A DNA stretch of 64,000 nucleotides from Diploptera punctata (Eukaryota; Arthropoda; Insecta; Blattodea; Blaberidae), in the NCBI GenBank assembly GCA_030220185.1, contig JASPKZ010009649.1, positions 1 to 64,000 on the forward strand, in the 5' to 3' direction. Of the stretch, positions 3,247 to 62,406 are shown in pieces; the stretch's first letter is position 1; every line of letters starts with the position of its first letter. A program made the translations under genes and the position numbers. The notes under the pieces are model-generated. The model had not been told where the DNA came from. It saw only the letters and a program-made list of their open reading frames with translations, and searched no databases.

Positions 3247-3345
3247 GTAAGTTGACTATGACTCAACTTAATGATTAACCTACAGGATTACCAACCTATA
3301 ATTCAACAGTCTGATGACAGAATGCAAGCATTCTGAAACATTATA

Positions 3346-3685
3346 TTTGTAGAGAAAAATTATACGCTCAGACTGGAGCTCGAACCCAGGAACTTTAACA
3401 CTCTAGGCTAATGCTTAACCGAGTGAGCTATTTGAGTGAGCTCCAATCTAAACGCCAATTTTTCTCTTATATACGCTGTTAATTCCTGCGTACCAAATGC
3501 TATGAAACCTTTGCTTCTATCTTACAAATGGTGGCTTCTTTATTACGAAGACATTTAATTGGGAATTTTAAATTACATTATAAAGCCTGGGTTCGAGCCC
3601 CAGTCTGAGCATAATAATTTTCTCTTCAAATATAATTTATCCATTACTGAATTGTATGAAATGATTAATAAAAACATTTTAAAAA
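3346..3685. mobile_element. tRNA-headed SINE, family B, inverted copy
   Basis: The left part (-) is a tRNA-like head flanked by the family's AGAGAAAAATTATACGCTCAGAC edge and upstream region. At about 3590 it switches to plus orientation, re-entering at the B box (GGGTTCGAGCCCC) and running through CTCTTCAAATATAAT to ATTAATAAAAACAT. Short end on the left, long end on the right. A 7-bp AAACATT on both sides may be the target duplication. Sequence differs more from other copies, so this is an older insertion. Confidence 0.6.
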
Positions 3686-10961: not shown

Positions 10962-13900
10962 ATGGACCTTAAACCAAATAACAAAATAAAACCTTTGCTA
11001 ATTTTAGAATGGAATGCCAACGTAATAAGAAATGAAACTCTTGAATTTACTAACTTATTAACTAGACTAAACATAGACGTTGTCTTAATATCTGAGACAA
11101 AACTAAAGAAACACATCACTTGGAGAATTCCAAACTATGACATTTACAGAACTGACAAAGACAACAGACAAGGCGGTACGGCGGTAGTTGTTAAATCTAC
11201 TATTCACCATTCACCAACTACTATACATGGACTAACTAATATACAAATAACAGCAATAGACATATACTCACATAACATTACAACAACTATAGGAGCTGTA
11301 TACTTTCCACCAGGAAATATTTTAACAACTAGAGAACTAGATATACTTACTAGACATACTAACAACTTTATATTTGGAGGAGACTTTAATGCAATAAGTC
11401 CAACATGGAACTCACGAATTACAAATGCTAAAGGCAGAACTCGGGGGCACGCCGTAGCGTAGTGGTTAAGGCACTGAGCTACAAGCCGGAGGGTCGAGGG
11501 TTCAAGTCCCGTTGGGGTCAGGAATTTTAAACTGACCCAAACCCTCTGGCGGCACTATGGCCCTGGGGTCGACTCAGCCTCAAACGGAAATGAGTACCAG
11601 ACGCTTGTTCTGGGGTAAAGGCGGCCGTCACGCAGGGCTGACAACCCGGCTGACATAAAGTGCCGATTGTCTAGATAAAGTGGGAGCCTTAACCTCCTAC
11701 TACCCCAAGGGCCACCCCGAGGCCTGTTGTGGGATCACTTTACTTTACTTTACTTTACTTTACTTTACTTTACTTTACTTTACTTTACTTTACTTTACTT
11801 TACTTTACTTTAACTAAAGGCAGAACTCTCTTACAACACTCACTAGACAACTACTATCAAATCACAGGACCTTTACAACCTACATTCTACAGCTATCAGG
11901 GACATAGACCGGACGTCCTAGATATTTTTATTACAAAACCTAGACCTATCATAAACTACATAGATGTTCTAGATGAATTAAATTCTGACCATAGTCCAGT
12001 AATAATGGAAATTAACATACATCCCATTAGATCAGAGACTAGAAATAACATAACTAGAACAACAAAACTGGGCTTCATACAGACAAAAATTAAATGACAG
12101 TCTAACTCCAAATATTACAATAAATACTACTACAGAATTAGACATAGTCACTAAAACTTTTCAAGATACGCTCCTACAAATCTACAATAACTCTAATACC
12201 ACTAGTATGACAAGAAAACAAGACACACATAACATTCCAGGACTAACTGCACTATTATTACAGAAAAGACAAATCAGAAGAAAATGGCAACGTCTAAGAA
12301 CACACGAAGACTAGCACCAACTAAATATAATCACTAAAAGAATCAAATTATTAATACAGAATCACAAAATAGAACATCTAAATAAAGAACTAAAGACTGC
12401 AGTTGAAACTGACACTACCTGGAAAATAATCAAAAAATTTATACATAGACAAACAACAAGAAACAGACCATTACATGGAAGAAACGGACTACTAATCGAC
12501 GACCAAGACAAAGCAAATGCTTTTGCAGATACTTAGAAGACCAATTCAGATCTAGAATAAGAAACAACACGTATGAATATTTTCAAGGAAAAATCAGAAG
12601 ACAAACAAGAACATACTTAAACGCACCTGCGACATTTCACATACCAATTGCTACTACTAACCAAATTAAGAAAATCATCAAATCTCTAAATAATAATAAA
12701 GCCCCAGGACAAGACAGACTAACTACAATTTCACTTAAACAACTTCCTAGGAAAGGTCTAGAACATTTGACTAAAATTCTAAATACTGCACTAAAATTAC
12801 ATTATTTCCCAGCCCCTTTCAAACAAGCTCATATCACTACCATTCTCAAATCCGGCAAAAATCCACTATTTCCTCAAAACTACAGATCTATTAGCTTACT
12901 TGATCATATAGGTAAAATACTAGAAAGACTAATACTTAAAAGACTAATACATAACTCTCAATTTGCTTTCAGATCTGAACACTCAACTACACTACAACTA
13001 ACTAGACTCATGGACGACATCACGACTGGATTTTTACAAATAAAATACACAACTGCAGTCTTTTTTGACATAGAAAAAGCTTTTGACTCCGTTTGGCACA
13101 CAGGTCTAATTTCTAAATTAATACAGTATAAAATTCTAGACAGCTACATTAAACCAATTCATTCCTTCTTAAACAAACGTACATTTAGAATAATTTGTAA
13201 CAGACAGAAAATAATTGGCACCCAATCAAAGCTGGTGTTCCCCAAGGATCTGTACTGGCACCTACACTATACAACATTTACACAGCAGACCTCCCAACTT
13301 CATTACACACCAAAATAGCACAGGAAGCAGACGACACAGCTATATACTGTACACATAATGACATTCATCATACTACAAGAAAAATTCAAACACACATAAA
13401 CAAGATCAGCAACTGGTTCTCCAAATGGAGAATCAGACTAAATGCTGAGAAAACACAAGCAATTGTATTCACAAGAAGAAGACCAAATCCAACTCCACTA
13501 TATATAAATAACACAAACTTAGAATACAAAGATTCAGTAAAATATTTAGGAACCATTTTACACAAAAAACAAACATTCAATCAACACATCAAACAACTGA
13601 AAACTAAAACATTAACTAGAATATCTCACATCTTCCCTATACTTACATCACACACATTCACAATAAAACATAAAACAAACCTATACAAAGCACTCATCAG
13701 ACCACTCATGACATACGCCAGTCCCGCCTGGGGACACGCAGCTGGTACACACACATCAAAAATCTTCAAATTGTTCAGAATAAAGCTTTAAGAATTATAT
13801 TACACGCAGATCGTCGAACCCAGATTTCTCTACTACATGACATTACAGAATTATCTTACATAATAGACCACATTAAACACCTAGCATGCAAACAGAAAGA

Positions 13901-31418: not shown

Positions 31419-31841
31419 CATATTTAAAGAGAAAAATTATACGCTCAGACCGGGACCCTTGGTTTTCTAGTCCAAGTGCTCTACCATTTGAGCTACCTGA
31501 GCAAGTACCGATCTAAACGCAAATCTTTCTCTATATACATTGTAATTTCCGCCCACCAAATGCTTTGAAGCCTTTGCTTCTATCTTTGCAAATGGCGGCT
31601 CCTATATTAAGAAGACATATTTGGGAATTATACATTACATTATAAATGCAATGGCTATTTTCGATGTTTTTATTATTAATTTCATACATCTCAATGATGG
31701 ATAAATCATATTTAAAGAGAAAAATTATACGCTCAGACCGGGACTTGAACTCGGGACCCTTGGTTTTCTAGTCCAAGTGCTCTACCATTTGAGCTACCTG
31801 AGCAAGTACTGATCTAAACGCAAATCTTTCTCTATATACGT
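31419..31841 (-). mobile_element. tRNA-headed SINE, family B, direct tandem dimer upstream of the F-box gene
   Basis: Two tRNA-like heads in the same orientation repeat with a period of 288 bp (unit edges CATATTTAAAGAG at 31419 and 31707). Each head on the minus strand folds as a tRNA: acceptor GCTCAGG/TCTGAGC, D stem GCTC/GAGC, anticodon stem CTTGG/CCAAG with an oversized loop, and B box GGTTCAAGTCC. A perfect 12-bp repeat TGTATGACATGT flanks it at 31407-31418 and 31842-31853. The insertion ends about 50 bp before the F-box ATG. Confidence 0.85.
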
Positions 31842-31892: not shown

Positions 31893-32870
31893 ATGAGTTC
31901 CTGCACAATTGATGATTTACCATTAGAAGTCCTTCTAATAATCTATTCTTACATTAACACTCATGACCTCTTTACATCGTTGTCACACGTATGTAAGAAG
32001 TGGAGATATCTCATTTGGGAAGATGCTTCTGTTTGGAAGAATCGATGGTTTGAAATTTTCCACAACACACAATGTCCACACCTAAAAACTTATCCTCCCA
32101 TAAATGCTTTAAAGTGTCGCCACTATGAAAGAAATACTGTAGATATATTTTCAAATTTATATAACCAAGGTATAAAATTAAGAAAATTGGAGCTGTTCAA
32201 TAACGAGGCTGATACAAATGAAGCCTTTACATTTTTAACAACAAAATTTAAAAACATAGAACATCTTAGGTTTTGTGCACATTATAATTTTGAATTTGAT
32301 TTAATTTGCAAATTTTCTAACTTAAAAGTTCTGATAATGTGGAATTGCTCTAACTTGTTGGGTCGTCACCTCAGAGCTATAGCAGATGGATGCAAAGAGC
32401 TTTCTGCATTGACCATGGGTTGGAGCAGAAGTTTGATTGATGATGACATTGAATATTTTCTTCAGAAGAAACATGAACACTTAGAAATTCTAGAAATTGA
32501 TGGACATGATTTAACAGAAAGAGCATTTACAGAAATTTCAAAGTGTGAAAAAATTGTTAAGTTTTCTTTACAAGACGCAAGTCACATAAATTTAAACACA
32601 GTGTGTTCGCTCATCAAATTGCCTAAATTAAAGTATTTGACTCTAAAACAATGTGCTATACCTGAACAAGAATTAGTTAATGCTTTCAGAAATGTAGAAG
32701 CTTGCAAAAATTTGACAGAGGTGAATCTTAGAGATTATTACTATAATTTTGATGCTATTTTTGATCAAATACATTTTTTGTGCCCTAAAATTAAAATTAT
32801 TAGTGGAATTGGTATAAATAGCCGTATCGATAATTTTATTGATACATTCAAAGACATGATTGCCAGCTAA
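31893..32870 (+). CDS. F-box/leucine-rich-repeat protein, intronless
   Basis: A 325-codon open frame with no breaks. Residues 5-52 form an F-box (IDDLPLEVLLIIYSYINTHD, then LSHVCKKWRYLIWEDASVW), which recruits substrates to SCF ubiquitin ligases through Skp1. From about residue 95 onward leucine-rich segments recur (KLRKLELFNN, NLKVLIMWNC, HLEILEIDG, KLKYLTLKQC, NLTEVNLRDY), the usual substrate-binding part of FBXL proteins. ATG at 31893 is the first in frame. A possible splice acceptor (TTGCAG, ending 31860) lies just upstream, so a 5' exon may exist. AT-rich codons match the host. Substrate and exact orthologue are not identified. Confidence 0.85.
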   Translation: MSSCTIDDLPLEVLLIIYSYINTHDLFTSLSHVCKKWRYLIWEDASVWKNRWFEIFHNTQCPHLKTYPPINALKCRHYERNTVDIFSNLYNQGIKLRKLELFNNEADTNEAFTFLTTKFKNIEHLRFCAHYNFEFDLICKFSNLKVLIMWNCSNLLGRHLRAIADGCKELSALTMGWSRSLIDDDIEYFLQKKHEHLEILEIDGHDLTERAFTEISKCEKIVKFSLQDASHINLNTVCSLIKLPKLKYLTLKQCAIPEQELVNAFRNVEACKNLTEVNLRDYYYNFDAIFDQIHFLCPKIKIISGIGINSRIDNFIDTFKDMIAS

Positions 32871-35769: not shown

Positions 35770-35880
35770 AAAATACTTAATGTAAAAAAAATCAACACTT
35801 AAACTGGGAACTGAACCCTGGAGCTCTGATTCTGTATGTCAGTGTGTAACCTATTACACCATTCAAGACCAAATACGAGG
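35770..35880 (-). mobile_element. tRNA-like SINE head, divergent subtype
   Basis: Minus strand reads GGTGTAATAGGTTACACACTG and GGGTTCAGTTCCC, a tRNA-like A/B box pair. Similar heads occur at 57365-57450 and 57905-58010. Confidence 0.55.
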
Positions 35881-42189: not shown

Positions 42190-42276
42190 ATTAGGGTTTT
42201 TAGGGTTGGGAACCTTTAGGTAAATTTTTTTTTGTTTGGTTAGAATTTTGTTTATGCATCAAAGAGGTGGACAATA

Positions 42277-42402
42277 AATCATACTTGAAGAGAAAAATTA
42301 TACGCTCAGACCGGGACTTGAACCCGGTCTGAGCGTATAATTTTTCTCTTCAAATATGATTTATCCATCATTGAGATGTATGAAATTAATAATAAAAACA
42401 TC
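42277..42402. mobile_element. tRNA-headed SINE fold-back, 126 bp
   Basis: Flanked by the perfect 13-bp repeat GAGGTGGACAATA (42264-42276 and 42403-42415). The left arm is the minus-strand SINE edge from TCATACTTGAAGAG to the B box; it switches directly at CCCGG to the plus-strand edge (TCTGAGCGTATAATT) and runs to the long end AATAATAAAAACATC. The tRNA anticodon half is missing: only the part 3' of the B box is present, twice, in inverse orientation. Confidence 0.9.
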
Positions 42403-42415
42403 GAGGTGGACAATA

Positions 42416-43955: not shown

Positions 43956-44179
43956 TTTTTTTTTTAACTTCATGGTTGTAAATTTTACGTTTTTAGAAAT
44001 AGCCCTCGATGAAGTGAAGACCTATTTTGCACTATGTATCCTAATAAGTCAAGTTAGAAAACCTAAAATAAAATTGTTCTGGAGCAAAAGAATTACTTAT
44101 TTTAGGAATTCTCACTATGAGGTATATTCATTAAGGTAGAATATTTTTATCACTCACCTCATATTGTTGTTCTTATTTG

Positions 44180-44227
44180 ATTATAAATTAGTTTCGGAAC
44201 ATAGTTTCTGTTCCATCCTCAGTATCG
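44180..44227 (-). ncRNA. Hammerhead ribozyme, PLE family A, left arm
   Basis: Minus strand: AUA, CUGAGGA, one U, stem II GGAACA/UGUUCC (six perfect pairs, loop GAAACUA), GAAAC. Stem III is damaged (ACUAAU for ACUAGU). Catalytic core bases are all canonical. ATGAGGTGAGT follows about 30 nt further. Confidence 0.6.
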
Positions 44228-44912
44228 TCACGACCGTCGTCTTGAAGAGCTGTCCTTCTCTCCTTCCATTGGCTGACTGAAAAACCTCGAAACCAGGCCA
44301 TTCTCACCGGGAATTTCAAAGTTCATTAATTTCTTCTTTTCGCTCTTTTGAATGTAGATCTTTTCCCAAACAGTAAGTTCTTTTGGTTTTTCTATTTGTT
44401 TTAATAATTTAGCTTCTTTCTCGATAAGATGTTTTTCAGACCATGCATGGGCAGCCACTGCAGATTTTTCTACTTCCCCTTTCTTGACATTCCTGAGATG
44501 TTCTTTCACTCTAGTTTTCAAATTTCTCTTAGTTTTTCCTATGTAGAATTTCTCACATTCTTCACATTTAATTTGATAAATCCTTGATTTGTTTTCTTCT
44601 TTAATTTTCTCATTCTTATTAGGTCTAATCAGTCTACTGATGCTGTAGTCATTTTTTGGGTGCTAACCTTATGTTGAAATCTTTAAAAAATGTTTGAAAC
44701 TTGTGGTGTTTTAATGGATGATATGTGAATTTTTTAAATTTTACATTATCTTCTTTAACTTTTAGAAGAGTGCTTTGATTAATAAATTTTTGTCTTTTGA
44801 ACTTATTTATTTTTTTTAGTATCATTTTTATTGCAAAACCATTTTTTGTGGCTACGTTGATTATGTGTTCTTTTTCTTTTTCATAATTTTCTTTGTTCAT
44901 TGGTATGTTCAC
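44228..44912 (-). pseudogene. PLE GIY-YIG endonuclease, left arm
   Basis: 44912-44649 encodes the linker (MNIPMNKENYEKEKEHIINV, KINKFKRQKFINQSTLLKVK). After a break, 44600-44228 gives IYQIKCEECEKFYIGKTKRN, KEHLRNVKKGEVEKSAVAAH, ELTVWEKIYIQK and MNFEIPGENGL: GIY-YIG core, helix and tail. The domain nicks target DNA in PLEs. The reverse transcriptase is absent, so the copy is 5'-truncated. Confidence 0.8.
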
Positions 44913-44913
44913 T

Positions 44914-45596
44914 AATCAACGTAGCCACGAAAAATGGTTTTGCAATAAAAATGATACTCAAAAAAATAAACAAGTTCAAAAGACAAAAATTTATTAATCA
45001 AAGCACTCTTCTAAAAGTTAAAGAAGATAATGTAAAATTTAAAAAATTCACATATCATCCATTAAAACACCACAAGTTTCAAACATTTTTTAAAGATTTC
45101 AACATAAGGTTAGCACCCAAAAAATGACTACAGCATCAGTAGACTGATTAGACCTAATAAGAATGAGAAAATTAAAGAAGAAAACAAATCAGGGATTTAT
45201 CAAATTAAATGTGAAGAATGTAAGAAATTCTACATAGGAAAAACTAAGAGAAATTTGAAAACTAGAGTGAAAGAACATCTCAGGAATGTCAAGAAAGGGG
45301 AAGTAGAAAAATCTGCAGTGGCTGCCCATGCATGGTCTGAAAAACATCTTATCGAGAAAGAAGCTAAATTATTAAAACAAATAGAAAAACCAAAAGAACT
45401 TACTGTTTGGAAAAAGATCTACATTCAAAAGAGCGAAAAGAAGAAATTAATGAACTTTGAAATTCCCGGTGAGAATGATCTGGTTTCGAGGTTTTTCAAT
45501 CAGCCAATGGAAGGAGAAAAGGACAGCTCTTCAAGACGACAGAACAACGGTCGTGACGATACTGAGGATGGAACAGAAACTAAGTTCCAAAACTAG
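44914..45596 (+). pseudogene. PLE GIY-YIG endonuclease, right arm
   Basis: Same protein as the left arm in opposite orientation: KINKFKRQKFINQSTLLKVK at 44955-45030, a break near 45125, GIYQIKCEECKKFYIGKTKR at about 45195-45260, KEHLRNVKKGEVEKSAVAAH, and DDTEDGTETKFQN at the end. The frame's last 15 codons overlap the hammerhead core. Confidence 0.8.
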
Positions 45597-45605
45597 TTTA
45601 TAATC
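45558..45605 (+). ncRNA. Hammerhead ribozyme, PLE family A, right arm
   Basis: AUA, CUGAGGA, U, stem II GGAAC/GUUCC, AAAAC (G12 to A), stem III AC/GU around UA, then U and UAU pairing with AUA as stem I. Compared with the left arm, core and stem III defects are complementary: each arm keeps what the other lost. Confidence 0.5.
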
Positions 45606-45780
45606 AAATAAGAAGAACAATATGAGGTGAGTGATAAAAAATATTCTACCTTAATTTTAGAAATGTCCATTTACAGCAAAACTTATGCCCTTCAAAAGAT
45701 CCTTCCTAATTTCGAGGTTTCTTCACTTCAATGACAATGAATCTGTAATTAGAGGTGACAGAATTTACTAAATTGGACCC

Positions 45781-47950: not shown

Positions 47951-48590
47951 GGAATTATTAATCAAGTTATGAAACCATCCCTTGTACAAAAAAAACACCA
48001 GATTACGTTTATATAACACTTTGGCTAGACCAGTGTTGACCTATGGTAGTGAAGCACGGACACTAAAAAGACAACATGAAAGCAGAATAACGGCTTGTGA
48101 AATGAGATTCATGCGCAGAACAGCGGGTTACACCAGATGGGATCGGAAAAGGAACACCGATCTTAAAAGAATTGAAGACTACGCCAATTTTGGAATGTAT
48201 TAAACAGTACCAACTAATACTAAATTAATGTTGGGAAGTAAACATTATGAGGTATAATCATTCAAATTCATCGGAGAACATATTGTTTAAACAACTCACC
48301 TCATAGGATTCATGCTTCCATGATATCGCGATTTCATGGAAGCATGAATCCTATGAGGTGAGTTGTTTAAACAATATGTTCTCCGATGAATTTTAATAAG
48401 TACCAACTAAATTGGAAACACCATCTTGAAAGAATGAGTTCAAATCGGATCCGCAAAGCTGTTTATAATTATATACCAAGAGGACGAAGATCACTGGGCC
48501 CATTCTATGAAACGCTGGAGGGAAAATTTTCTATAGGATCGTAACAGGCCTTGGCCTAATACTTGGAAGGAAGAAGAAGAAGGGAAAAGA
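47945..48590 (+). pseudogene. LINE reverse transcriptase C-terminal region, copy 2, split by a PLE
   Basis: 47945-48217 and 48399-48590 are nearly identical to 33860-34290 (RLRLYNTLARPVLTYGSEAR, MRFMRRTAGYTRWDRKRNTD). The gap is the PLE fold-back 48218-48398 with a duplicated AGTACCAACTAA. Removing it would rejoin the LINE sequence. Confidence 0.85.
48218..48398. mobile_element. PLE terminal fold-back, 181 bp, with 12-bp target duplication
   Basis: AGTACCAACTAA flanks it at 48206-48217 and 48399-48410. Arms are near-perfect inverted copies of the family B terminus (TATGAGGTGAGTTGTTTAAAC), joined in the middle at CCATGATATCGCGATTTCATGG. The left terminus is long (AATGTTGGGAAGTAAACATT), the right short (GATGAATTTTAAT). 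Confidence 0.92.
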
Positions 48591-49487: not shown

Positions 49488-49792
49488 TTCCATCCATAGT
49501 AATTCTGCCCAAAGGCAGGTCCTTTGCTGCAATCATAACATTTTCATGCTATGCTTGCAGCTTTACTAGGGAATTGTTGGTGTGGTAGCTTCCCGTTGCT
49601 TTCCACACCAGTGAAGGATGATGATGATGATGATGGCCATATGATTTCGGGGACCATTTGGGCCTTAAAGTTTTCCTGACATTTGTCTTACAGGTGAGGA
49701 AAAACCCCGATAAAAACCTCACCCAGAAAAACTGCCCTGACCGGGCCCGCTGCGTTACAAGGCAGCACGCTACCTCGAGACCACAGCGGGGT
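49488..49792 (-). mobile_element. tRNA-derived SINE, family C, copy 3
   Basis: Near-identical to 2251-2608 over AGTAATTCTGCCCAAAGGCA, TTTTCATGCTATGCTTGCAG and the (ATG)n stretch; the head end has lost part of the B box. Confidence 0.75.
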
Positions 49793-49919
49793 TGGGAAAC
49801 TTTAATTTCTTTTTTTAATTTGTGATGCTTCAATGGATGGTAAGTGAATTTCTTGAATTTTATGTTTTCTTCTGTTTTTTTTATAAGTGTATTTTCATTA
49901 ATTAATTTCTGTCTTTTGT

Positions 49920-50149
49920 CGATGTTTTTATTATTAATTTCATACATCTCAATGATGGATAAATCATATTTAAAGAGAAAAATTATACGCTCAGACCGGG
50001 ACTTGAACCCGGGACGTATATAGAGAAAGATTTGCGTTTAGATCGGTACTTGCTCAGGTAGCTCAAATGGTAGAGCACTTGGACTAGAAAACCAAGGGTC
50101 CCGGGTTCAAGTCCCGGTCTGAGCGTATAATTTTTCTCTTTAAATATGG
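49920..50149. mobile_element. tRNA-headed SINE fold-back, 230 bp
   Basis: Perfect 13-bp repeats TTCTGTCTTTTGT at 49907-49919 and 50150-50162. The left part is the long end and edge on the minus strand up to the B box (GGGACTTGAACCCGGGAC); the right part is a plus-strand copy with upstream region, complete tRNA-like head (acceptor, D, anticodon and T arms) and the short end CTCTTTAAATATGG. Confidence 0.92.
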
Positions 50150-50260
50150 TTCTGTCTTTTGTACTTATTTACTTTCTTGTGTATCATATTTTCTTCAAAA
50201 CTGTTTTCTATTGCTAATTAATTTGTATTCTTTGCTCATAGGTATATTTACTAATCTAGC

Positions 50261-57271: not shown

Positions 57272-57364
57272 GTAATCACTAAGGTTAAGAAACTGGTCTA
57301 AACAGATGATAGCATATGAGATGAGGTGTAAAGAATTTTATTTAAACTTCCTATACCTAATTTA

Positions 57365-57724
57365 AGAAAGAAAAATTAATGCTTGAACCAAGATTTGAAG
57401 CCTGGACCTCTCATTCTCCATAAGAATGTGCTGTCCATTACACCATTCAAACAACGGTACAAAACTATATTTGCAAAGAAAAAATATATGCCTAGACTGA
57501 GGTTTGAACCCAGGACCTTTAACTCTCTATGTCAATGCTCTATCCAAGTGAGCTTCCTAGGCCTGCAATCTAAATGTGTATTTTTCTCTTATACATAGTT
57601 AATTCCTATGAGCCGTTGCTACGATTGGGTTCAAACCCCAGTCTAGGCATATATTTTTCTTTTCAAATATAATTTGTCAATCATTAAGATGTTTAAAAAC
57701 AAATAATATGAACAATGATACAAA
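57365..57724. mobile_element. tRNA-headed SINE pair, one inserted into the other
   Basis: 57365-57463 is a divergent tRNA-like head (-). A 247-bp inverted copy (57464-57710) of a related type is inserted behind it with AACAACGGTACAAA and AACAATGATACAAA (12 of 14 identical) as target duplication. The insert starts with the short end on the minus strand, switches near 57617 to plus at the B box (GGGTTCAAACCCC) and ends with the long end. Confidence 0.75.
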
Positions 57725-57904
57725 CGTTAACATTTCTTTCAACTTATACAATTCTCATTCGTCCGAAGGCTGATAGCTGTCGCTACCATCACGTCAACTG
57801 ACATCTATTCAGTAGTATTTTTATTGAGAAATACTACTTTTTAGAGGTAAAGCTTCATGTTTTTATTTGAACTAACATTTTCCAATTTGGATAGAATCTA
57901 ATTT
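57725..57904. other. Unassigned sequence between SINE heads
   Basis: No feature recognised. Confidence 0.4.
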
Positions 57905-58004
57905 AAGAAAGAAATATTAATGTTTGAACCAGGATTTGAATCCTAGACTTCTTGTTCTCCTTACGAGTATGCTGTCCATTACCCATTCAAACAACGATAC
58001 CTAC
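57905..58004 (-). mobile_element. tRNA-like SINE head, divergent subtype
   Basis: Closely matches 57365-57463 (GAACCAGGATTTGAATCCTAGA, GTATGCTGTCCATTAC) and directly abuts a LINE fragment. Confidence 0.6.
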
Positions 58005-58345: not shown

Positions 58346-58775
58346 CCAACTTTGATCCTCCAGGCAGATGACATCTCCACTTGTTAAACTTCACATAAGC
58401 AACCGGCCTTCACTGGTGAAATGGAATCTAGCAACTGATGGTAAGTGCACTGTATACATATATAGCTGATTGAAATACTCCTTTTCAATCAATGCCCTTT
58501 GTTTCAATTCCAATAAAGAAACTGTCAACCATTGCTGCCAAAACCTATCTTGAAATTTCTGCCAGAGAAGTGTTGTGATGTACCAAGGCCATGTCCAAAA
58601 AAATTATCTGCTGTTTTAAAGTGCAACATTTAGAACATATTCTGCCGAACTGTACAACTATAAATTGTCATAGAAATGCTCTTATAAAGTCACTATTACC
58701 TCAAACCTTCGGTGAAACATATCAATTCATATTGTTTATTTTTTATTATTTCACTCACCTCATACTTCATAATTC

Positions 58776-58824
58776 ATAGCAGACCCTGGATTTCTTCACA
58801 TATTTTGTGACATTCTCAATGCTG
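58776..58824 (-). ncRNA. Hammerhead-like motif, PLE family H
   Basis: Minus strand: CAGCA pairs with UGCU, core UUGAGAA (two changes from CUGANGA), stem II UCACA/UGUGA, GAAA, a stem III of AUCC/GGGU and a GUC triplet. Architecture fits, core is damaged. Confidence 0.42.
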
Positions 58825-58894
58825 CGTCACGTTCAAACTGACGTCCAACGGCCTTCTATCCTGCAGACTGACCTCCGCGCCATCTGGTGGCGAC

Positions 58895-59270
58895 CGAAGA
58901 ATTTCCAAATCAGTCCTCTTTCTTTATAACCGGGTATTTCAAAATTCATAGTTGTATTTTCATTCTTGCATATGTAAATTTTTTCCAAATTGTGAGTTCC
59001 TTCGGTTTTTCCAATTGTTTAAGTAATTTTGTTTTGGTTTCTATTCTATGTTTTTCTGACCAGGCATGTGCAGCTATTGCAGATTTTTCGGTTTCTCCAT
59101 TTTTAACATTTCTGAGGTGTTCTTTTAATCTTGTATTTAGATTCCTTTTTGTTTTTCCTATGTATATCTTTTCACAATCTTTTACAATTAATTTGATAAA
59201 TTCCCGATTTTTTGCAGTCTTCAATCTTTTCATTTTTGTTGGTTTTTATTAAATTACCTAAGCTGTAATC
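58895..59270 (-). pseudogene. PLE GIY-YIG endonuclease in a Cdc20 intron
   Basis: 59233-58946 reads CEKIYIGKTKRNLNTRLKEH, LRNVKNGETEKSAIAAHAWS and KEL-TIWKKFTYARM. The first GIY motif is broken (REFIKLIVKDC). Confidence 0.75.
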
Positions 59271-59642
59271 ATTTTTTGGTGCTAATTTAATGTTGAAGTA
59301 TGAGGTGAGTGAAATAATAAAAAATAAACAATATTAAAAAACCTCATAGTGTTATTTCCTATCTACATAACTTAATATCAATTCATCTTATCCACGCCTA
59401 AGCTATGGACTATTGCAGAGCTTGTATATAGTTTACATAGGAAAAATCAACTCTTCAAGTAGTGTAACTATGCAATGGAATCATGTCATCAGTTATGGCT
59501 GGAAACATGTAATGAAGAAAGAAGAAAGTGCAAGGTACAGAAATTGAATTTTTAAATTTAAATTCATCGCACAATATTATTTTTTTTGAAAACTCACCTC
59601 ATACATTTCGTGATTTTATGAAGCCAGGGTGAAAAGCATGAA

Positions 59643-60113
59643 CCATATTTGAAGAGAAAAATTATACGCTCAGATTTGGACTTGAACCCTGGACCCTTGG
59701 TTCTCTAGACCAAGTGCTCCACCATCTGAGCTACCTGAGCAAGTACCGATCTAAACGCAAATTTTTCTCTATATACGTTGTAATTCCCGCCCACCAAATG
59801 CTATGAAGCCTTTGCTTCTATCTTTGCAAATGGCGGCTCCTTTATAAAGAAGACATATTTGGGAATTATACATTACATTATAAATGCCAGTACACTTTTT
59901 TCAATGTTTTTATTATTAATTTCATACATCTCAATGATGGATAAACCATATTTGGTTTCTAGACCGGTACTTGCTCAGGTAGCTCAGATGGTAGAGCACT
60001 TGGTCTAGAGAACCAAGGGTCCCGGGTTCAAGTCCCAGTCTGAGCGTATAATTTTTCTCTTCAAATATGGTTTATCCATCATTGAGATGTATGAAATTAA
60101 TAATGAAAACATT
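59643..60113. mobile_element. tRNA-headed SINE inverted dimer, 471 bp
   Basis: Perfect 12-bp repeats GAAAAGCATGAA at 59631-59642 and 60114-60125. The left unit (-) is complete: short end, tRNA-like head, upstream region with the hairpin GAAGCCTTTGCTTC, and the long-end phrase. The right unit (+) has a tRNA-like head and ends in the long end (TTATCCATCATTGAGATG through AATAATGAAAACATTG). Short end left, long end right. Confidence 0.92.
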
Positions 60114-60125
60114 GAAAAGCATGAA

Positions 60126-60209
60126 ATTTATCAGGTGAGTTAAAAAAATCTCCAATGAATTAAAATGATTATTACCTCATAATGTTTACTTCTGAACATT
60201 AATTTCAAT
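60126..60209 (+). mobile_element. PLE terminus, family B
   Basis: TCAGGTGAGTTAAAAAAATC and TTACCTCATAATGTTTACTTC ending AACATTAATTT: the long terminus of the family at 62305-62391. Confidence 0.7.
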
Positions 60210-60950: not shown

Positions 60951-61142
60951 GCAGTTGAAAAGGACAGATCATTCTTTTTTGGATGCTGCCTTTGTACACA
61001 CAATACTTCTGTGCAAGAAATTTGAAGGTAGGTTTCAGCATGCGATGGTTGATAATTCCATTGTAAGTAACAGATAAATACTTACTTAAAAATCATCGGA
61101 GAACATATTGTTTAAATAACTCACCTCATAGGATTCATGCTT

Positions 61143-61190
61143 CCATGATATCGCGATTTCAAACATAATCATGTTCATCGTCAGCCATAA
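61143..61190 (-). ncRNA. Hammerhead ribozyme, PLE family B, left arm
   Basis: Mirror of 62245-62292 with the same core, stem II and stem I; one extra T upstream of stem I is the only difference. Confidence 0.6.
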
Positions 61191-61311
61191 ACTCCGACTG
61201 TTGAAATTCTTCGGCCGTCAACTATTCTATTGTCGCCATCTTCAGTGCTGCTATCTATGGTTGAATTTATGAACTTCGAAATCAATGTAATTTCGTTAGG
61301 GATATCAAAAT

Positions 61312-61701
61312 TCATTGATCTATTTTTGTTTTTCTGAATGTATATTTTTTTTCCCAAACTGTCAATTCCAAAGGTTTCTCTACTTGTTTTAAAAGTTTAG
61401 CTTCTCTTCCAATTTTATGATGTTCTAATAAACTATGTGCAGCAATTGCAGATTTTTCAATTTCACAATTTTTAATATTTCTGAAATGTTCTTTTGTCCG
61501 AATTTCCAAATTCCTTTTTGTTTTTCCTATATAATAAACTTTATTGCAATCTTCACAATTTATTTGATAAATTCCAGATTTCTTACTGTCTGGAACTTTG
61601 ACTTTTTTATTGGTACTTAGAAGATTACCCAGACTAAATTTATTTATTGGTGCCAAAAAAATGTTGTATTTGTCAAAAAATTTTTGAAATTTCCTATGCA
61701 T
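61312..61701 (-). pseudogene. PLE GIY-YIG endonuclease, left arm
   Basis: 129-codon frame: linker end (MHRKFQKFFDKYNIFLAPIN), SGIYQINCEDCNKVYYIGK (one extra Y), KEHFRNIKNCEIEKSAIAAH and ELTVWEKKY. GIY and YIG motifs, the conserved R of KRNLEIR and the final E of the fold are recognisable. The frame shifts before the C-terminus. Confidence 0.8.
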
Positions 61702-61766
61702 TTCAGGATGGTAAGTAATTTTCTTGTATTTTTTCTTTTCTTTGCATAGGAAATTTCAAAAAATTT

Positions 61767-62276
61767 TTGACAAATACAACATTTTTTTGGCACCCAATAA
61801 ATAAATTTAGTCTGGGTAATCTTCTAAGTACCAATAAAAAAGTCAAAGTTCCAGACAGTAAGAAATCTGGAATTTATCAAATAAATTGTGAAGATTGCAA
61901 TAAAGTTTATATAGGAAAAACAAAAAGGAATTTGGAAATTCGGACAAAAGAACATTTCAGAAATATTAAAAATTGTGAAATTGAAAAATCTGCAATTGCT
62001 GCACATAGTTTATTAGAACATCATAAAATTGGAAGAGAAGCTAAACTTTTAAAAGTAGAGAAACCTTTGGAATTGACAGTTTGGGAAAAAATATACATTC
62101 AGAAAAACAGAAATAGATCAATGAATTTTGATATCCCTAACGAAATTACATTGATTTCGAAGTTCATAAATTCAACCATAGATAGCAGCACTGAAGATGG
62201 CGACAATAGAATAGTTGACGGCCGAAGAATTTCAACAGTCGGAGTTATGGCTGACGATGAACATGATTATGTTTGA
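61767..62276 (+). pseudogene. PLE GIY-YIG endonuclease, right arm
   Basis: 169-codon open frame with SGIYQINCEDCNKVYIGKTK, EIRTKEHFRNIKNCEIEKSA, ELTVWEKIYIQKNRNRS and a C-terminus ...GVMADDEHDYV. It is the longest uninterrupted GIY-YIG frame in the window, but lacks the reverse transcriptase. The last codons overlap the hammerhead core. Confidence 0.82.
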
Positions 62277-62292
62277 AATCGCGATATCATGG
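62245..62292 (+). ncRNA. Hammerhead ribozyme, PLE family B, best-supported copy
   Basis: Stem I UUAUGG (62245-62250) pairs with UCAUGG (62287-62292) over six positions including G-U pairs. Core CUGACGA (62251-62257), one extra U, stem II GAACAU/AUGUUU (62259-62264 with 62269-62274), GAAA (62275-62278), stem III AU/AU around CGCG, and A at 62286 as the cleavage base. All invariant core bases are present. The TATGAGGTGAGT hairpin begins 13 nt later at 62305. Confidence 0.65.
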
Positions 62293-62304
62293 AAGCATGA
62301 ATCC

Positions 62305-62364
62305 TATGAGGTGAGTTATTTAAACAATATGTTCTCCGATGATTTTTAATGATTATACCTCATA
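62305..62364 (+). other. Conserved PLE terminal hairpin, reference copy
   Basis: TATGAGGTGAGT (62305-62316) and ACCTCATA (62357-62364) can pair as an 8-bp stem across about 45 nt. The same pair occurs at 46459/46511, 47682/47726 and 59299/59341 and inverted at several places. GAG|GTRAGT also equals a strong 5' splice site consensus. The short type of terminus ends before ACCTCATA; the long type includes it. Confidence 0.75.
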
Positions 62365-62406
62365 ATGTTTACTTCCCAACATTAATTAAATATAAATACT
62401 TACTTA

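What the first reader, a model, noticed from the sequence alone, without database searches (positions are those of the whole stretch)
59643..60113. A tRNA-headed SINE uses the same inverted-dimer, short-end/long-end architecture as the PLEs
Family B SINE insertions at 42277-42402, 49920-50149, 57464-57710 and 59643-60113 are inverted copies with 12-14 bp target duplications. In all four one end is short (CTCTTCAAATATGG type) and the other long (adds about 45 nt, TTATCCATCATTGAGATG to AATAAAAACAT). This is the PLE rule applied to an element with a tRNA promoter and no coding capacity. Tail sequences are not obviously shared with the PLEs. Inference: the SINE is mobilised by PLE machinery, which would be an unusual partnership for a tRNA-derived element.
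Basis: partly seen in the sequence, partly recalled or inferred. Interest (0 to 1): 0.88.

Follow-up and report, generated by a model that had tools for sequence, protein, structure and literature searches.

The report
SINE that rides Penelope retroelements
A short tRNA-bearing repeat in what is likely an insect genome sits mostly in back-to-back copies with one short and one long end, the same layout as the Penelope-like retroelements around it, so it is likely copied and inserted by their enzymes and not by the LINE enzymes that SINEs normally borrow.

Summary
The four named insertions are head-to-head composites of a tRNA-bearing unit; three have exact 13-bp duplications, the fourth 14 bp with two mismatches. 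In each, one end is short (S) and the other long (L), 37-44 nt apart. Across the copies sampled, 45 of 48 complete inverted composites are S/L: 33 of 36 (window and first sample), 11 of 11 (tRNA-only query), 1 of 1 (incidental). PLEs in the same loci follow the rule in 13 of 15 composites; the two exceptions have weak duplications. SINE and PLE insertions share duplication length (9-18 and 12-18 bp) and a two-sided target motif, AAN|duplication|NTT. A LINE-type SINE of the genome is monomeric and uses the motif less. Corrections: the element is not strictly tRNA-headed (about 160 nt lie upstream of the tRNA in a ~303-nt tandem unit), and no tail shared with a PLE could be shown. Best reading: a tRNA-promoter SINE inserted by PLE machinery, with cDNA started on both target strands at two internal RNA sites. 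Layout, end rule and motif are shown; partner protein and transcription are inferred. I found no PLE-mobilised SINE in the papers searched.

The parts
59630..59642 (.). left target-site duplication TGAAAAGCATGAA
59643..59955 (-). left arm: S end at 59643, tRNA 59666-59741, leader, and an internal long tail of a preceding unit (tandem piece); inner border approximate
59666..59741 (-). tRNA-like body (ARAGORN label tRNA-Ser AGA)
59956..60112 (+). right arm: tRNA, S site at about 60070, L end at 60112; inner border approximate
59972..60047 (+). tRNA-like body; Rfam tRNA match 59973-60046, 52.2 bits
60071..60112 (+). 42-nt tail between the S and L ends
60113..60125 (.). right target-site duplication
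42277..42402 (.). SINE B inverted dimer; S left, L right; duplications 42264-42276 and 42403-42415; both arms end at the T arm; PLE ORF pieces on both sides (by eye)
49920..50149 (.). SINE B inverted dimer; L left, S right; duplications 49907-49919 and 50150-50162
57464..57710 (.). older SINE B inverted dimer; S left, L right; 14-bp duplication with 2 mismatches
31419..31841 (-). SINE B direct tandem (about 1.4 units): internal long tail, terminal S end, duplication TGTATGACATGT
3343..3677 (.). older SINE B inverted dimer, S left, L right, no clear duplication
59552..60208 (.). small inverted PLE composite, 16-bp duplication TACAGAAATTGAATTT, S left (51 nt), L right (79 nt); the 59643 SINE lies inside it
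58731..59374 (.). inverted PLE composite, duplication ATATCAATTCAT, S left, L right (33 and 75 nt from anchor)
61089..62391 (.). inverted PLE composite with GIY-YIG ORF pieces, duplication ATAAATACTTACTTA, S left, L right (41 and 86 nt)
48218..48398 (.). inverted PLE composite, duplication AGTACCAACTAA, L left, S right
11443..11815 (+). control: LINE-type SINE A, monomer, (ACTTT)n tail, duplication AAAGGCAGAACTC at 11430 and 11816

Best explanation
Family B is a tRNA-bearing repeat without a long ORF whose copies are mostly head-to-head, often tandem, composites with one short and one long 3' end about 42 nt apart, the layout of the Penelope-like elements (PLEs) in the same genome, and it is likely inserted by a PLE reverse transcriptase/GIY-YIG endonuclease. 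Shown: the composites, the S/L rule, the duplications, the shared target motif, and tandem copies holding linker and leader sequence beyond the long end that is rarely seen at an outer end (L018, L066:1212). Inferred: (1) a transcript starting near the tRNA, often from a tandem source, is bound by PLE protein; (2) the enzyme cuts both target strands at sites of the form N^NTT about 13 bp apart, leaving 3' overhangs; (3) one target 3' end primes cDNA at internal RNA site S (within CAAATATGATT) and the other at site L (near AAAAACAT), about 42 nt further 3'; (4) the two cDNAs, both antisense and facing each other, join through short complementary stretches around the tRNA, giving head-to-head arms; (5) repair copies the overhangs into the duplications. 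If the second strand does not start its own cDNA, a single-arm copy, usually ending at S, results.
For: S/L rule: 33 of 36 complete inverted composites in the window and loci L003-L069 (with 57464), 11 of 11 in the tRNA-only sample, 1 of 1 incidental (L044). PLE composites: 13 of 13 with convincing duplications, 13 of 15 with the two weak rows kept. S-to-L distance: SINE 37-45 nt in five window copies; PLE 28-52 nt, 11 of 13 within 39-47. Target motif, rule-based sets: SINE first sample 65 of 104 positions versus null mean 34.6 (max 52 in 3000 draws), second sample 29 of 40 versus 13.0 (max 24), PLE 36 of 52 versus 17.2 (max 29). AA/TT edges: SINE B 37 of 72, PLE 14 of 26, SINE A 5 of 22; B versus A p 0.015, B versus PLE p 1.0. 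PLE end motifs near SINE insertions: 1.63 per kb within 60 bp versus 0.51 at 500-1499 bp. Published PLE biochemistry: internal initiation at two adjacent sites, both strands cut and extended, ATT preference, tail = stretch between the start sites (PMC11167929 parts 1-2 of 4). Controls: SINE A monomers, most with short (ACTTT)n tails; 0 of 41 long SINE A matches listed has an opposite-strand neighbour.
Against: No homology between the SINE tail and PLE ends beyond chance. The exact tail core outside its usual context was found 13 times; the 10 read were SINE B or another repeat, none a PLE. No SINE-PLE hybrid among 88 pairs. Exceptions to S/L: L066:1212 is L/L, L018 ends at a second CAAATATG inside the leader, L006:2831 cannot be called. 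PLE exceptions: L028 looks S/S and L016 26/54 nt (weak duplications); window 44110-45653 has arms of 32 and 53 nt, only 21 apart (weak duplication, p 0.012). A run of T (T5 in most window copies) follows the tRNA and should hinder pol III read-through. The in vitro study saw no start-site difference between strands, so it does not explain the one-each rule. SINE A matches the four-position motif at 25 of 48, so part of the motif reflects AT-rich targets; with the weak PLE rows kept, PLE versus SINE A edges give p 0.068.
Confidence: 0.83

Rival explanations
1. The SINE is mobilised by a LINE, and the inverted arms arise by twin priming or template jumping as in LINE-1 5' inversions.
For: ORFs that look like LINE reverse transcriptases by eye are in the window, and SINE A of the same genome looks LINE-mobilised.
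Against: In LINE inversions (general knowledge) only one outer end is a 3' end; here both are, without a simple-repeat tail, one S and one L in 45 of 48. In the SINE A listing 0 of 41 long matches has an opposite-strand neighbour. AA/TT edge use differs from SINE A (p 0.015).
Confidence: 0.06
2. A refinement, not an alternative: the mobilising enzyme is a PLE family outside the ATGAGGT-anchored group sampled here, one that does carry the family B tail.
For: Tail not shared with the PLEs sampled; only 30 PLE loci and two further stretches were read, out of 25370 first-look candidates.
Against: The tail core was not in a PLE in the 10 of 13 off-context places read. The target motif matches the sampled PLEs themselves.
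Confidence: 0.3
3. The palindromes are post-insertional: single insertions later duplicated head-to-head by DNA repair or replication.
For: Tandem arrays with a similar internal junction recur (junction 220/134 in L004, L007, L013, L014, L015).
Against: DNA duplication would not put one S and one L end inside one pair of target duplications at unrelated sites. The recurrent junction overlaps an inverted repeat in the unit itself.
Confidence: 0.03
4. The element is a terminal-inverted-repeat DNA transposon or foldback element that contains a tRNA gene.
For: Inverted arms and target duplications.
Against: Duplications vary from 9 to 18 bp; ends are unequal by rule; direct tandem and single-arm copies occur with the same S end.
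Confidence: 0.01

Closest known systems
Penelope/Poseidon PLEs (Anolis PAc, Drosophila virilis Penelope, Adineta Pen families)
   Same: Tandem and head-to-head inverted copies, optional 30-40 nt tail, short target duplications, ATT-type cleavage, internal reverse-transcription start at two sites (PMC11167929 parts 1-2 of 4 read; PMC3846280 passages read).
   Different: Family B has no long ORF, carries a tRNA-like promoter region, and shares no detectable end sequence with the PLEs sampled here.
NRPS gene mobilised between Penelope pLTRs in Adineta vaga
   Same: Non-PLE cargo moved in trans by PLE machinery in a PLE-type composite with an 8-bp duplication (PMC3846280 passages).
   Different: A single described event flanked by real pLTRs; family B is a multicopy family without PLE pLTRs.
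tRNA-derived SINEs with LINE partners (general knowledge; in-genome example SINE A)
   Same: tRNA-like body, no long ORF, short unit.
   Different: No simple-repeat or poly-A tail; head-to-head S/L composites; tandem units; about 160 nt upstream of the tRNA.
Retrozymes / hammerhead-bearing small retroelements
   Same: Small, non-coding, tandem units; a PLE link in animals is recalled, only listings were seen.
   Different: No hammerhead match in the window at Rfam gathering threshold or E up to 5.
Short nonautonomous Penelope elements of heliconiine butterflies
   Same: Non-coding elements filed under Penelope (PMC6685494 passages).
   Different: The passages seen give no structure or tRNA; not compared further.

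Membership tests
tRNA-derived SINE | tRNA-like region carrying the pol III promoter boxes | tested here: met
   ARAGORN and Rfam tRNA hits, up to 56 bits; boxes A and B read by eye
tRNA-derived SINE | no coding capacity, short unit | tested here: met
   303-nt unit; no ORF of 120 aa or more inside a window copy, one 132-aa frame runs out of the 49920 copy into its flank
tRNA-derived SINE | pol III transcription | not testable with these tools
   indirect only: a few arms begin 7 nt before the tRNA (L081 both arms, L085, L086, L087); larger clusters of arm starts lie elsewhere
tRNA-derived SINE | 3' tail shared with an autonomous partner | tested here: inconclusive
   no PLE match beyond chance; LINEs not compared
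LINE-mobilised SINE | monomers with poly-A or simple-repeat tail | tested here: not met
   0 of the 15 complete copies of the tRNA-only sample
Penelope-like element | single ORF with RT and GIY-YIG endonuclease | tested here: not met
   none in the unit; two PLEs of this genome have open frames of 838 and 843 codons
Penelope-like element | tandem and head-to-head inverted copies | tested here: met
Penelope-like element | optional tail of about 30-45 nt at one end only | tested here: met
   45 of 48 inverted composites S/L
Penelope-like element | hammerhead ribozyme in the terminal repeat | tested here: not met
   none in the window at E up to 5, in SINE or in PLE
PLE-type insertion site | ATT-like sites at both edges of the duplication | tested here: met
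   AAN|duplication|NTT in SINE and PLE
Retrozyme | self-cleaving hammerhead in repeats | tested here: not met

The most novel reading that the evidence does not exclude
A tRNA-promoter SINE family lives entirely on Penelope-like machinery, which would make it the first SINE class I know of whose partner is a PLE. It shows that the PLE enzyme makes two-strand, two-start insertions with a fixed asymmetry (one cDNA from S, one from L), recognising RNA shape and spacing and not a shared tail sequence.
Probability: 0.7. Interest if true: 0.87.

Novelty: new variant of a known kind. Interest (0 to 1): 0.82.

Why it matters
SINEs are generally taken to depend on LINEs. A multicopy SINE obeying the Penelope end rule would widen the set of enzymes that spread tRNA-derived repeats. 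It also offers a 300-nt natural substrate for the least understood retrotransposon class: its two start sites, their one-each use and the cDNA-joining step can be tested with short RNAs. The S/L rule over dozens of copies adds something the in vitro work did not show: the two strands do not seem to choose start sites independently.

Tried and rejected
Tail homology. SINE ends against 11 PLE ends gave best shuffle p values of 0.04-0.05 over 22 comparisons. With SINE pieces masked and 118 PLE-type ends, p was 0.24 (young tail), 0.17 (old tail) and 0.55 (S side). The best alignments do sit on the PLE anchor, but this is not significant and is not claimed. One search gave high scores only because SINE copies lay beside PLE anchors; discarded.

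Hammerhead: none in Rfam. The frame through the tail (LSIIEMYEINNKNIEK) as a PLE N-terminus: no homologue, and the two PLE ORFs read start differently. SINE-PLE hybrids: none in 88 pairs. Tail core outside its usual context: 13 places, 10 read, none a PLE. Exact SINE patterns in IMG/VR and in prokaryote genomes: no match. A genome-wide count of the S-site pattern did not complete, so I give no copy number beyond the 2454 first-look candidates.

Rows dropped: L001 (the window copy again), L002 (99% twin with the same duplication), L025 (same place as L008), composites cut by the locus end (L010, L013, L023:2983, L068:1958), single-orientation copies. L072, L077, L078, L084, L085 cut; L071, L073, L082, L087 single-orientation; L083 lies within 25 bases of the stretch end but has its duplication (16, one mismatch) and is counted. 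One search printed 22 rows; dropped: two L001 rows, two L002 twins, three rows whose 'duplication' was a tail motif or internal repeat (L038, window 60252/62306, L061), two weak rows (L016, L028). Motif sets: I picked 23 SINE copies by hand and trimmed some duplications; one search repeats the test with every S/L copy scoring 9 or more, untrimmed (26 and 10 SINE, 13 PLE). The SINE-first-sample and PLE numbers fell slightly and the ones are those given. L083 is left out of the motif set because its flank is too short. SINE A: 14 copies looked at, 12 with a duplication, one of them a duplicate locus (L111 of L102), 11 used for edges.

Full report
1. What was checked. The window is contig C9115 of a 3.12-Gb assembly in 10165 contigs. 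Its PLE endonuclease ORF is closest to proteins of the cockroach Diploptera punctata (58-71% identity in the best hits), so an insect is likely; the species is not given. The four named SINE B copies were re-read and their borders set by an automatic duplication search against a random-site null. The three young ones have exact 13-bp duplications; the old one has 14 bp with 2 mismatches. In unit orientation one end stops at CTCTTCAAATATGG or a few bases from it (S) and the other continues to about AAAAACAT (L); the differences are 42, 41, 44 and 37 nt. A fifth inverted copy (3343-3677) has 45 nt and no clear duplication.

2. The unit. The direct tandem copy 31419-31841 and the longer arm of 59643 show the repeat: linker, leader, tRNA-like body, GTATAATTTTTCTCTTCAAATATGG, 42-nt tail, then the linker of the next unit. 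A 303-nt reference was built from the two arms of 59643. The tRNA body scores up to 56 bits; the ARAGORN label tRNA-Ser rests on the anticodon. The leader end (AGAGAAAAATTTGCG...GGTACTTG) matches an inverted copy of the tRNA 3' half plus trailer (score 16; 0 of 1000 shuffles reach it), so the unit looks like the descendant of an earlier inverted dimer (inference).

3. Beyond the window. A 471-bp query gave 2454 first-look candidates, 40 scored, 30 loci; seven more SINE loci were fetched. Copies are head-to-head and often tandem: L010 and L013 show 11 and 12 unit matches in the fetched stretch, minus on the left and plus on the right. Of 36 complete, distinct inverted composites in these loci and the window, 33 have one S and one L end. 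The other three are L066:1212 (L/L, 99 bp, both ends running into the linker), L018 (left end at a second CAAATATG inside the leader, an S-like start) and L006:2831 (too old to call). That query was itself an inverted dimer, so I sampled again with a 101-bp tRNA-only query (138 first-look candidates, 40 scored, 47 matches) and fetched 20 places; arrays on C8344, C4811 and C434, places already sampled and C5130 were not taken. All 11 complete inverted composites there are S/L. One incidental copy in a PLE locus, L044, is S/L too. Total 45 of 48; by hand arithmetic a fair-coin choice per composite would give 45 or more with probability near 7e-11.

4. PLEs here. PLE 3' ends in the window carry ATGAGGTRAG, and long ends add ACCTCATARTG or close to it, its complement. 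A search for outward-facing anchor pairs with duplications printed 22 rows; after removing repeats, twins and motif artefacts 15 remain. In 13, one arm is short (28-51 nt from the anchor) and one long (69-87); the differences are 28-52 nt, 11 of 13 within 39-47. The two weak rows do not fit (L028 27/28, L016 26/54). Window 44110-45653, with a weak duplication, has arms only 21 nt apart. Two full PLEs with open frames of 838 and 843 codons were read (L061, L062); beyond their long end comes the ORF start, as in the published Anolis element.

5. Target sites. Oriented by S and L, both classes tend to read AA(C/G)|duplication|NTT. Hand-picked sets gave SINE 60 of 92 and PLE 38 of 52, and the second SINE sample 29 of 40. 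With every S/L copy above a fixed duplication score, untrimmed, the counts are 65 of 104 against a null mean of 34.6 (max 52 in 3000), 29 of 40 against 13.0 (max 24) and, for PLE, 36 of 52 against 17.2 (max 29); with the weak PLE rows, 39 of 60 against 19.8 (max 32). The control SINE A matches 25 of 48 (no null run for it), so AT-rich targets explain a part. On the stricter AA/TT edge count SINE B has 37 of 72, PLE 14 of 26, SINE A 5 of 22: B against A p 0.015, PLE against A p 0.028 (0.068 with the weak rows), B against PLE p 1.0. The symmetric NTT fits the 5'-ATT-3' preference on both strands reported for the Anolis PLE (PMC11167929, parts 1-2 of 4 read). If each 3' end primes directly, duplications require 3' overhangs (inference). 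PLE end motifs crowd near SINE insertions: 8 within 60 bp (1.63 per kb) against 33 at 500-1499 bp (0.51 per kb), over 41 insertions.

6. How it likely works. Published work shows that a PLE cuts and extends both strands and starts reverse transcription inside the RNA at two adjacent sites, the stretch between them being the 'tail'. Family B fits this, including tandem copies with sequence beyond L. Single-arm copies with a duplication end at S (31419, L066:643, L073, L087); the single-arm L ends L026 and L082 lack a convincing one. I read S as the first-strand and L as the second-strand start (inference from few cases). Arm junctions often fall at sequences with inverted complements around the tRNA (for example 134 with 220-253 in unit coordinates), as expected if two antisense cDNAs anneal (inference). 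A few arms start 7 nt before the tRNA, where a pol III transcript could begin, but this is a minor group among arm starts (6 of 133 in that bin; larger bins at 132 and 212-231), and the T run must be read through; transcription is untested.

7. What does not fit or is missing. No tail homology with PLEs, no PLE with the exact tail core in the 10 off-context places read of 13, no hybrid composite (88 pairs), no hammerhead. The published assay saw no strand difference in start site, so the one-each rule needs another cause, perhaps the predicted protein dimer. The partner family stays open.

8. Literature. Searches on nonautonomous Penelope elements and Penelope-mobilised SINEs listed no paper on a PLE-mobilised SINE family; apart from PMC11167929, PMC3846280, PMC6685494 and PMC5753468 (passages or parts) I saw titles and abstract starts only. 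The nearest cases are short nonautonomous Penelope elements in butterflies and one NRPS gene moved between Penelope pLTRs in a rotifer. The 2021 PLE survey cited in PMC11167929 was not held, and subscription papers and Repbase were not searched, so earlier description cannot be excluded.

Noticed in passing
C7004:932765-985709 (L002, L032) versus window: Contig C7004 carries 96-100% twins of the 59643 copy, of the PLE piece beside 42277 and of SINE A 11443, in reverse order; probably the other haplotype left in the assembly.
   Followed up: partly
window 42282-42356: The 42277 palindrome scores 41.5 bits to the microRNA family mir-965 (gathering score 43) on one strand and 39.1 on the other.
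   Followed up: no
window, for example 62306+, 59300+, 44162-: PLE ends carry ATGAGGTRAG, which looks like a splice donor, and long ends carry its complement ACCTCAT, so the two could pair around the short-end site.
   Followed up: partly
L094 and L095, tail at 1509 of the reverse strand: The SINE B tail is joined at nearly the same base to a different repeat, which by eye also occurs at window 49634-49822; looks like a chimeric element family.
   Followed up: partly
window 57357-57463, 57898-57990, 35773-35870: A further tRNA-like repeat family whose end (AATTTTTCTTTCTTAAATTAG) resembles the SINE B short end.
   Followed up: no
window 3343, 42277, 49920, 57464: In these inverted dimers one or both arms start at the 5' edge of the T arm, as if reverse transcription often stops there or the T-arm palindrome joins the cDNAs.
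   Followed up: partly
window 31893-32870 (+): Intact 325-aa ORF resembling an F-box/leucine-rich-repeat protein by eye.
   Followed up: no
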